Assembly (NCBI GenBank): GCA_947475845.1
Contig: CANJMO010000006.1
Span: 1-64,000 of the forward strand
Direction: 5' to 3'
DNA length: 64,000 nucleotides
Origin: Caulobacteraceae bacterium
GTDB taxonomy: Bacteria > Pseudomonadota > Alphaproteobacteria > Caulobacterales > Caulobacteraceae
This document shows, one piece after another, positions 51,493 to 53,333 of the stretch. The notes below the pieces were generated by a model. The model made no database searches, was not told the DNA's origin, and saw only the letters and a list, made by a program, of their open reading frames with translations. Made by a program: the position numbers and the translations under genes. The number at the start of each line of letters is the position of its first letter. Positions within the stretch are counted from its first letter, which is position 1.

Positions 51493-51557
51493 TTAGCCCG
51501 GGATCTTCTCCCACTCGGCCATCCAGGCCGCGGGGTTGCCGTCCGACTGCGCACGCC
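51493..51557 (-). repeat. Direct-repeat copy of the nadE 3' end, fused to the GSCFA gene
   Basis: The last 22 codons of the GSCFA gene match the last 22 codons of nadE at 19 positions. Over 51494-51531 against 53270-53307, 38 bases differ at one site; beyond that the match fades. Both copies point the same way and are read in the same frame, with the stop codon included. Confidence 0.85.
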
Positions 51558-53028
51558 AAAAGGCCTGCCGGGTCGGAGCGGGGCGGGGCGCCGTCCGCGT
51601 TGCGACCCCCTTGATGGCCACCGAGCCTCCGACACCTTCGTCGCCAGCGTTGCGGATCAGAAGGTGCGCCGGATCATCGTCCGGCAACAGGCGGAAGGTC
51701 ACGGTCTTCTCGCCATCCTCAGGCCGGATCATCCACGCGGCAGTGCCGACCTGCGAGCCGTCGTCGGCGCGAATCAACAGCACCTGGGCCGGACAGTTAC
51801 TGGCCAGGGTCACCTGAACATGCATCTCCTCGTCATCGGCTTCGGACGCCTTGAAGCCTTCGACGGTCATGGCGCCATAGTCCCAGGCGCGCGTCGGCAC
51901 CGGAGCTGCGGCCGGGTCTGAGCCAAGCGCCTGTCGGTCGGCAAGACTTGTCCAGCCGACCGCGGCGGCAGCCCAAGCCGAAGGCCCGTGCGTCGGGGCG
52001 GGATGGACCTCCAACGCCAATTTCTCGATCAGCTCGGCGGTCGGCTCGTCGTCACGCAGCATGAACTGATCGATGAGCGCCTGCGTCGCCCGGCGGCCCT
52101 GCTCCAGGCACTTGAAGAGTTCGGGCGGGAGATCGGAGGTCGCCACGCGCGCTTCGGCATAGGCCCTCAGTACGCTTTTCCCGGAGCGAACGCTCGTGCA
52201 GTAGTGCGTCTCGAACAAGCGCATGATGAAAGCCAACATCGGTTCTTCGGCATGGCGACGGTCCGGGCAGAAGTGGCCGCCGTACGGGTTCTGGCCGAAG
52301 CCTTCCATGACGATCTCGTAGGACGGCCAGTAGTGCAGCACGCCCTCGCCGGCGACCTCGCGCACCACCTCGTCCACCGCCGCCCGCAACACCGCCTTGG
52401 ACACCGCGTTGGCGGTGATGGTCGACACCGGCCGGAACGTCGCCATCAACGGGATCGGCGACAAGGTGCAGATGATCTTGGCGTCGGGCCGGTGCTTGCG
52501 GATCAGGTCGTAGATCGCGCGGATGTTGTCGCGGTTCTCCTGCACGGTGGAGACCCGGAACTTGTGCCGGGCCGGATCGACGTACTTGCGCGGCACCGCC
52601 TTCCAGAACACTTCCCCGGTCGGCTCGTCGTACCAGACCTCGGACAGGCCGAAGGTCAGGATGAAGACGTCGGTCTTCATGAACAGATCGAGGGTCTCCA
52701 GCCGGGTCGACTCGTCGTAGCCGAACTTGGTGCCGTGGTAGCCGTACCAGAGGTCGACGGAGGGGAGCTTGTTCTCCAGCGCCCATTCGAATTGCTGGCG
52801 GATGGCGAAGGTGGTGACCAGGGCCTCGGCCATCTGCACCACGTAGGACTTGGCCTCACCGCGGTTCACCAGCGTGTAGTTCCTGGCGTTCAAATAGTTG
52901 CTGATGTTCTCGGCGAAGCAACTGCCGAAGGCGCAGATGTTGGTGGCTAGGTCGATGAACGGCGCCTTGGGCAACAATCCAATAAGAATGAAGCGTTCGA
53001 TGGCATCGTGCCGCCGCATGTCTGCCAT
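51493..53028 (-). CDS. GSCFA-domain protein (SGNH-like) with island module and nadE-derived tail
   Basis: A 511-residue protein. Residues 1-320 are a GSCFA domain: FGSCFAENISNYLNARNY, FILTFGLSEVW, YVDPARHKFRVSTVQENRDN, and HYWPSYEIVME. The family is SGNH-hydrolase-like and found in glycan clusters; an acyl-transfer or esterase role is plausible. Residues about 380-475 are the island module (AWDYGAMTVEG, QVLLIRADDG, AHLLIRNAGDEG). The last 22 residues ([17 protein letters not shown] and before) copy the end of NAD synthetase. I start at ATG 53028; a GTG at 53043 is possible and overlaps a perfect inverted repeat. Confidence 0.78.
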   Translation of the reverse strand: MADMRRHDAIERFILIGLLPKAPFIDLATNICAFGSCFAENISNYLNARNYTLVNRGEAKSYVVQMAEALVTTFAIRQQFEWALENKLPSVDLWYGYHGTKFGYDESTRLETLDLFMKTDVFILTFGLSEVWYDEPTGEVFWKAVPRKYVDPARHKFRVSTVQENRDNIRAIYDLIRKHRPDAKIICTLSPIPLMATFRPVSTITANAVSKAVLRAAVDEVVREVAGEGVLHYWPSYEIVMEGFGQNPYGGHFCPDRRHAEEPMLAFIMRLFETHYCTSVRSGKSVLRAYAEARVATSDLPPELFKCLEQGRRATQALIDQFMLRDDEPTAELIEKLALEVHPAPTHGPSAWAAAAVGWTSLADRQALGSDPAAAPVPTRAWDYGAMTVEGFKASEADDEEMHVQVTLASNCPAQVLLIRADDGSQVGTAAWMIRPEDGEKTVTFRLLPDDDPAHLLIRNAGDEGVGGSVAIKGVATRTAPRPAPTRQAFWRAQSDGNPAAWMAEWEKIPG

Positions 53029-53041
53029 GTTCGGATTGAAC

Positions 53042-53060
53042 ACAACAGTTTCACTGTTGT
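53042..53060. promoter_or_regulatory. Perfect 8+8 inverted repeat at the GSCFA gene start
   Basis: ACAACAGT (53042-53049) and ACTGTTGT (53053-53060) form a perfect inverted repeat with a 3-base spacer immediately upstream of the GSCFA gene's ATG and overlapping an alternative GTG start. It could be an operator for a dimeric regulator or a translation-blocking hairpin; no T-run follows on either strand. Confidence 0.4.
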
Positions 53061-53061
53061 A

Positions 53062-53154
53062 CTAGTAGGAATCCTTGCGCTCCTTTTGCTCGGATTCTGA
53101 GATACTATCACTGGTGACGTCGTCGACCTTTTCGGGGCGGGTGAGAGAAGTCAT
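53062..53154 (-). CDS. Possible 30-residue hydrophilic peptide
   Basis: A short frame begins with ATG at 53154 and ends with TAG at 53062-53064, between nadE and the GSCFA gene and in the same direction. The peptide is highly charged and Ser/Glu-rich (TSDSISESEQKERKD) with no hydrophobic segment. The upstream ribosome-binding site is weak. It may be chance or a leader peptide for the GSCFA gene, whose start lies 20-35 bases downstream behind an inverted repeat. Confidence 0.25.
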   Translation of the reverse strand: MTSLTRPEKVDDVTSDSISESEQKERKDSY

Positions 53155-53268
53155 AGCTGAACGCTTCTGCTGGATTGAAAGCCGATATTGCCCGATCAGG
53201 GCGGGGGGCGCCTAGTGCCTGTCAGGGAAGAATGAGCGCCCTCCCAATGCGTCGGCGGTGCCCACGAT

Positions 53269-53333
53269 CTAGCCCGGAATCTTCTCCCACTCGGCCATCC
53301 AGGCCGCCGAATTGCCGTCGCTGGGCGCGCGCC
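53269..53333 (-). repeat. Original copy of the direct repeat at the nadE 3' end
   Basis: This is the native C-terminal coding end of nadE ([24 protein letters not shown]). Its upstream context [18 protein letters not shown] is standard for long NAD synthetases, so this copy is the parent and the one at 51493 the derivative. The 1.7 kb between the copies holds the GSCFA gene body, the inverted repeat and the small frame. Confidence 0.85.

What the first reader, a model, noticed from the sequence alone, without database searches (positions are those of the whole stretch)
51493..53333. Copied 3' end of nadE fused in frame onto the GSCFA gene
The final 22 residues of the GSCFA protein match those of NAD synthetase at 19 positions, and 38 consecutive bases (51494-51531 against 53270-53307) differ at one site. 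The two proteins are otherwise unrelated. The direct repeat brackets 1.7 kb, as when an element or recombination event uses the 3' end of a housekeeping gene. It may mark how the GSCFA gene entered beside nadE.
Basis: seen in the sequence. Interest (0 to 1): 0.65.

Follow-up and report, generated by a model that had tools for sequence, protein, structure and literature searches.

The report
nadE gene end copied onto GSCFA
In one Caulobacteraceae genome the last 65 or so bases of the housekeeping gene nadE (NAD synthetase) were copied onto the end of a neighbouring gene of the GSCFA family, giving that protein a borrowed 22-residue tail and stop codon; it is a real, lineage-specific gene-end duplication, but an ordinary kind of accident with no sign of a mobile element or of a function.

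Summary
The last 22 residues of the GSCFA protein (minus strand, 51493-53043) match those of NadE (minus, 53269-55305) at 19 positions. The DNA repeat is 65 nt (51494-51558 / 53270-53334); its outer 38 nt differ once, and similarity stops at the stop codon. It is not chance: at 21 control nadE loci the nadE end finds at most 38/66 elsewhere, against 55/66 here. NadE is the source: family NadE proteins carry this tail, none of about 55 GSCFA relatives read does, and in 390 family genomes only this genome has it on GSCFA. GSCFA's C-terminal beta-sandwich has paralogues in the same cluster that stop before the tail, so the tail is an add-on. Best reading: a one-off short duplication of the nadE 3' end, joined in frame to a patchwork GSCFA gene in a rearranged polysaccharide locus. 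The att-site/mobile-element reading lacks support: no integrase on the contig, no empty site, only 1.7 kb with one gene between the repeats. Whether the tail does anything is open. Side finding: an in-frame amber codon replaces a conserved aromatic residue near the GSCFA N-terminus.

The parts
53269..55305 (-). nadE, glutamine-dependent NAD+ synthetase (678 aa); source of the copied end
   Evidence: Pfam NAD_synthase and CN_hydrolase; full-length match to the solved NadE 3dla, E 6e-254, conserved up to the GDWRAPSD..W motif; 87% identical to G025 nadE
53270..53334 (-). source copy of the repeat: last 65 nt of nadE, ending within the stop codon
   Evidence: same tail type in NadE of the family
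51494..51558 (-). derived copy of the repeat: last 21-22 codons of GSCFA; outer 38 nt (51494-51531) nearly identical to nadE
51493..53043 (-). GSCFA-family gene (516 aa from GTG 53043, 511 aa from ATG 53028): SGNH-like core, C-terminal beta-sandwich, NadE tail
   Evidence: PF08885 E 5e-39; model resembles SGNH/GDSL esterases
51590..52000 (-). C-terminal beta-sandwich domain of GSCFA (about 123-134 aa), in the family found only in this genus
   Evidence: profile search, 390 family genomes, alignment, model
53062..53064 (-). in-frame amber codon (TAG) upstream of the GSCFA start, where homologues have a conserved aromatic residue (TWFRGE / SFYRGE)
53065..53154 (-). 30-codon open stretch MTSLTRPEK...KDSY in frame with GSCFA, probably its former N-terminus
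48979..51492 (+). convergent neighbour (predicted membrane protein by eye); its stop codon abuts that of GSCFA; also carries the beta-sandwich at its C-terminus
55389..59545 (-). two genes (366 aa and 1028 aa) between nadE and the conserved backbone; absent there in G025, the 1028-aa gene present there in G038

Best explanation
A short stretch (about 65-70 nt) of the 3' end of nadE was duplicated and joined in frame to the 3' end of the neighbouring GSCFA gene, replacing or extending its natural end and supplying its stop codon. Shown: the copy, its direction (nadE is the source), the frame, its restriction to this genome among those searched, and that the beta-sandwich's relatives end before it. 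Inferred: that it arose by a one-off illegitimate recombination (template switch, or a similar short ectopic copy) while a polysaccharide locus was being rearranged next to nadE, and that the tail is an incidental C-terminal extension, predicted to form two short helices. The near-identity of the outer 38 nt beside a diverged inner 27 nt suggests either later gene conversion between the two ends or a source allele slightly different from the present nadE.
For: Repeat far above chance. NadE ends of the family carry W-R-x-P-S-D-x..W (also the solved NadE 3dla); no GSCFA relative read does, and in 390 family genomes the tail search finds only this GSCFA and NadE-like ends. The copy has the derived [10 protein letters not shown] end of this genome's NadE, not G025's WLAALDRVPD, so it is younger than that split or came from a close relative. 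Beta-sandwich paralogues in the cluster end 2-25 residues after the last strand with unrelated ends. Locus rearranged within the genus: different DNA on both sides of nadE in G025, polysaccharide genes on other contigs in G025.
Against: No relative shows the state before the fusion, so the event itself is not reconstructed. The Ser codon of the copy (TCG) is the family-typical one, while this genome's nadE has AGC, so the present nadE is not the exact template. 11 nucleotide differences give only two changed residues, which could mean selection on the tail, although much of that could lie on the constrained nadE branch.
Confidence: 0.64

Rival explanations
1. The two copies are attachment sites: a small or since-eroded integrative element inserted into the 3' end of nadE, restored it with its own copy, and left the original end behind GSCFA.
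For: Integrative elements use 3' ends of housekeeping genes, with 12-54 bp repeats that in guaA and rplL contain the exact 3' end (PMC4701971). Here the repeat ends exactly at the stop codon and the outer 38 nt are nearly identical.
Against: No integrase on the contig; only two tyrosine recombinases in the genome, on contigs C5 and C19; one gene between the repeats; no empty site in G025; no paper found with nadE as a site. The second copy is in frame with GSCFA and its similarity runs 27 nt further than the near-identical part.
Confidence: 0.12
2. A tandem duplication of nadE (with or without GSCFA) was followed by deletion of nearly all of the second nadE, fusing GSCFA to what was left of its end.
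For: Would yield an in-frame fusion with the nadE stop codon and a diverged inner part.
Against: Needs at least two deletions; no other trace of a second nadE in the genome.
Confidence: 0.12
3. The tail is kept because it works: it lets the GSCFA protein bind NadE or otherwise uses the NadE C-terminal helices, and selection (or gene conversion) keeps the two ends alike.
For: 5 of 7 changed codons (stop included) are synonymous; random substitution of 11 sites never gave so few changed residues in 50,000 trials. The tail is predicted as two helices.
Against: The simulation treats all changes as neutral, but several (e.g. TCG to AGC) lie on the nadE branch, which is constrained; on the GSCFA branch alone the bias is weak. 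No other genome searched has such a tail on GSCFA. Cofactor synthesis and polysaccharide modification have no evident link.
Confidence: 0.08
4. Assembly artefact: chimeric joining at the repeat.
For: Genome in 101 contigs; exact shared stretch of 29 nt.
Against: A misjoin can swap flanks but cannot create two diverged copies; both open frames run through the copies.
Confidence: 0.04

Closest known systems
Partial gene duplication with in-frame fusion (capture of a neighbouring gene's end)
   Same: A short end of one gene is copied to another, adding residues and a stop codon; both genes stay open.
   Different: The copied piece is very short, comes from a core metabolic gene next door and contains its conserved C-terminal motif.
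Integrative elements inserted into 3' ends of housekeeping genes (e.g. ICEs in guaA, rplL, lysS; PMC4701971)
   Same: Direct repeat made of the exact 3' end of a housekeeping gene.
   Different: No integrase, no mobility genes, one gene between the repeats, no empty site, and the repeat is fused in frame to a coding gene.
GSCFA family PF08885 (SGNH hydrolase clan, no characterised member; PMC9487903)
   Same: Conserved GSCFA block and core, SGNH-like predicted fold.
   Different: N-terminal motif interrupted by an amber codon, genus-only C-terminal beta-sandwich, NadE tail.

Membership tests
Partial duplication of a gene end | Two copies far more alike than chance | tested here: met
   55/66 against at most 38/66 at 21 control loci
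Partial duplication of a gene end | One copy is native to its gene family, the other is not | tested here: met
   Tail on family NadE, on no other GSCFA read
Partial duplication of a gene end | Relative with the unfused arrangement | tested here: inconclusive
   GSCFA absent beside nadE in G025; G038 contig ends before nadE
[quoted passage not shown]
   Repeat ends at the stop codon
Integrative element in the nadE 3' end | Integrase gene inside or next to the repeats | tested here: not met
   Only GSCFA between the repeats; PF00589 only on C5 and C19
Integrative element in the nadE 3' end | Empty site in a relative: one nadE end joined to the same distal flank | tested here: not met
   G025 nadE is followed by unrelated DNA; no closer relative was available
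GSCFA family (PF08885) | Profile match above the curated cut-off | tested here: met
   134.8 bits against 25
GSCFA family (PF08885) | Conserved GSCFA block | tested here: met
   G35 S36 C37 F38 A39 invariant in 30 sequences
GSCFA family (PF08885) | Enzyme activity | not testable with these tools
   No member characterised (PMC9487903)

The most novel reading that the evidence does not exclude
The GSCFA enzyme has taken over the NadE C-terminal helices as a working docking peptide, kept alike by selection or gene conversion, so that a polysaccharide-modifying enzyme is tethered to the NAD synthetase assembly.
Probability: 0.05. Interest if true: 0.65.

Novelty: new member of a known kind. Interest (0 to 1): 0.27.

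Why it matters
It is a clean small example of how a bacterial gene can gain a C-terminal extension and stop codon from its neighbour, caught before the copies have drifted apart, in a gene that also carries a genus-specific domain and seems to have lost its N-terminus. It also warns that a direct repeat of a housekeeping gene's 3' end is not enough to call an integration site.

Tried and rejected
Chance similarity: rejected. Tail as a common feature of GSCFA proteins: rejected, about 55 relatives read. Tail on other proteins of the genome or family: none convincing; hits of the C-terminal region in G145 and G239 were chance matches in unrelated proteins. nadE beside GSCFA elsewhere: no nadE match in the loci fetched around the relatives (up to 8 kb each side). 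Empty site in the genus: not found. Integrase, tRNA, known RNA: none near. Phage origin: 10 proteins of the window (GSCFA included) have no PHROGs match. nadE as a known integration site: the one paper opened for 'nadE' matched only an author name. The first genome-contig scan with the single GSCFA protein found nothing; the alignment scan worked.

Full report
Observation. NadE (minus strand, 53269-55305) and a GSCFA-family protein (minus strand, 51493-53043) end in the same 22 residues with three differences. The direct repeat is 65 nt long, 51494-51558 and 53270-53334, 1776 nt apart. The outer 38 nt differ at one site, the inner 27 nt at nine; beyond the stop codon there is no similarity. 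It holds the longest exact direct repeat on the 87-kb contig (29 nt; the next is 19 nt), and the two places are the only good matches in the genome. As a control, the last 66 nt of nadE were compared with the surrounding DNA at 20 other family loci (in most cases 18 kb) and on contig C54 of G025: the best match was 38/66 overall and 26/38 for the last 38 nt, against 55/66 and 36/38 here. The finding is real.

Which copy is the source. In the NadE proteins of the family whose ends were read, the C-terminus is G-D-W-R-[AM]-P-S-D-x..W (in L039 the reading ran on to a different end past the motif), and the motif is also in the solved NadE 3dla. In contrast, of about 55 GSCFA relatives read (Rhodobacterales, Hyphomicrobiales and others) none has it, and no nadE match was found in the loci around them (up to 8 kb each side). 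A search of 390 Caulobacteraceae genomes with the tail gave this genome's GSCFA and NadE and otherwise only ends of open frames of NadE size. The C-terminal beta-sandwich of GSCFA is shared by four other proteins on the contig, one on contig C20 and single proteins of the same-genus genomes G025 and G038; these end 2-25 residues after the last strand, without the tail. The tail was therefore added to GSCFA and comes from nadE.

Age and mosaic pattern. The copy has the [10 protein letters not shown] end of this genome's NadE, whereas same-genus G025 has WLAALDRVPD. The inner part is less clear: the copy has Ser TCG, the commonest codon there in the family, while the present nadE has AGC; Arg CGT, Gln CAG and Pro CCC are peculiar to the copy. 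Counted as sites, inner and outer parts differ in divergence (9/27 against 1/38, Fisher p 0.001); counted as mutation events the contrast is weak (p 0.07). Later gene conversion of the outer part, or a source allele slightly different from today's nadE, would both explain it. Only two codons are changed at protein level although 11 nucleotides differ; random substitution never gave this (0 of 50,000), but the test ignores that nadE itself is constrained, and on the GSCFA branch alone I count 3-4 synonymous against 2 non-synonymous codons, which is not decisive (my own polarisation).

Surroundings. The contig carries a polysaccharide-type locus (nucleotide-sugar genes, glycosyltransferases, methyltransferases). 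From about 60 kb on, the contig is collinear with G025 contig C54 (79-82% identity). In G025 the upstream gene is followed after 100 bp by nadE, and the 5.7 kb after nadE have no counterpart on this contig; in the window two genes (55389-59545) lie between, and GSCFA and the polysaccharide genes follow. G038 has the 1028-aa gene at the same place, then its contig ends. Homologues of the left end of the window and of the two nucleotide-sugar genes at 47-49 kb lie on other contigs of G025. The neighbourhood of nadE is thus variable in the genus, but no genome shows the state just before the fusion.

What GSCFA is. The core matches PF08885 (E 5e-39) and its model resembles SGNH/GDSL esterases; no member of the family has a known activity (PMC9487903). 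In a tree it is sister to a mostly Rhodobacterales clade (97/86) on a long branch, and relatives this close are rare in the family, so transfer is plausible but not shown. The beta-sandwich model has moderate confidence (mean pLDDT 69) and its weak best PDB matches are jelly-roll folds, including carbohydrate-binding modules 22, 4 and 29. The tail is predicted as two short helices. Upstream, an in-frame TAG (53062-53064) stands where homologues have the aromatic residue of T-W-F-R-G-E / S-F-Y-R-G-E. Third-position GC is high (0.75-1.0) through most of the gene and lower upstream of the TAG, so the gene looks coding but shortened. GSCFA is therefore a patchwork: core, genus-specific domain, nadE tail, broken N-terminus.

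Mechanism. I consider a one-off illegitimate duplication of the nadE end most likely (0.64). A nadE tandem duplication followed by deletion is possible and hard to tell from the first. A functional tail is not excluded.

Verdict. Confirmed observation, ordinary class of event, small interest for gene-evolution specialists.

Noticed in passing
window 53062-53064 (minus strand): In-frame amber codon between a 30-codon open stretch (from ATG 53154) and the rest of GSCFA, at the position of a conserved aromatic residue; either a nonsense mutation with a downstream start or a sequencing error.
   Followed up: partly
window 18269-18667, 28752-29222, 34310-34624, 51136-51489, 51590-52000; G000:C20 (L071), G025:C51 (L069), G038:C98 (L070): A roughly 125-aa C-terminal beta-sandwich (weakly CBM-like jelly roll by model), in the family found only in this genus, attached to different proteins of the same polysaccharide locus (FkbM methyltransferase, the 837-aa convergent protein, GSCFA). 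No Pfam match.
   Followed up: partly
window 24689-28465 and 56459-59545: Two large paralogous proteins (41% identical over 759 aa) without any Pfam match at opposite ends of the locus; among 149 family genomes searched, the only other relative is a 64% identical one in G038.
   Followed up: partly
window 55389-59545: Two genes inserted (or lost in G025) between nadE and the conserved backbone, so both sides of nadE vary within the genus.
   Followed up: partly
window 51490-51495: Stop codons of the convergent gene (TAG) and GSCFA (TAA) abut without a spacer; both genes carry the same C-terminal beta-sandwich domain family.
   Followed up: no
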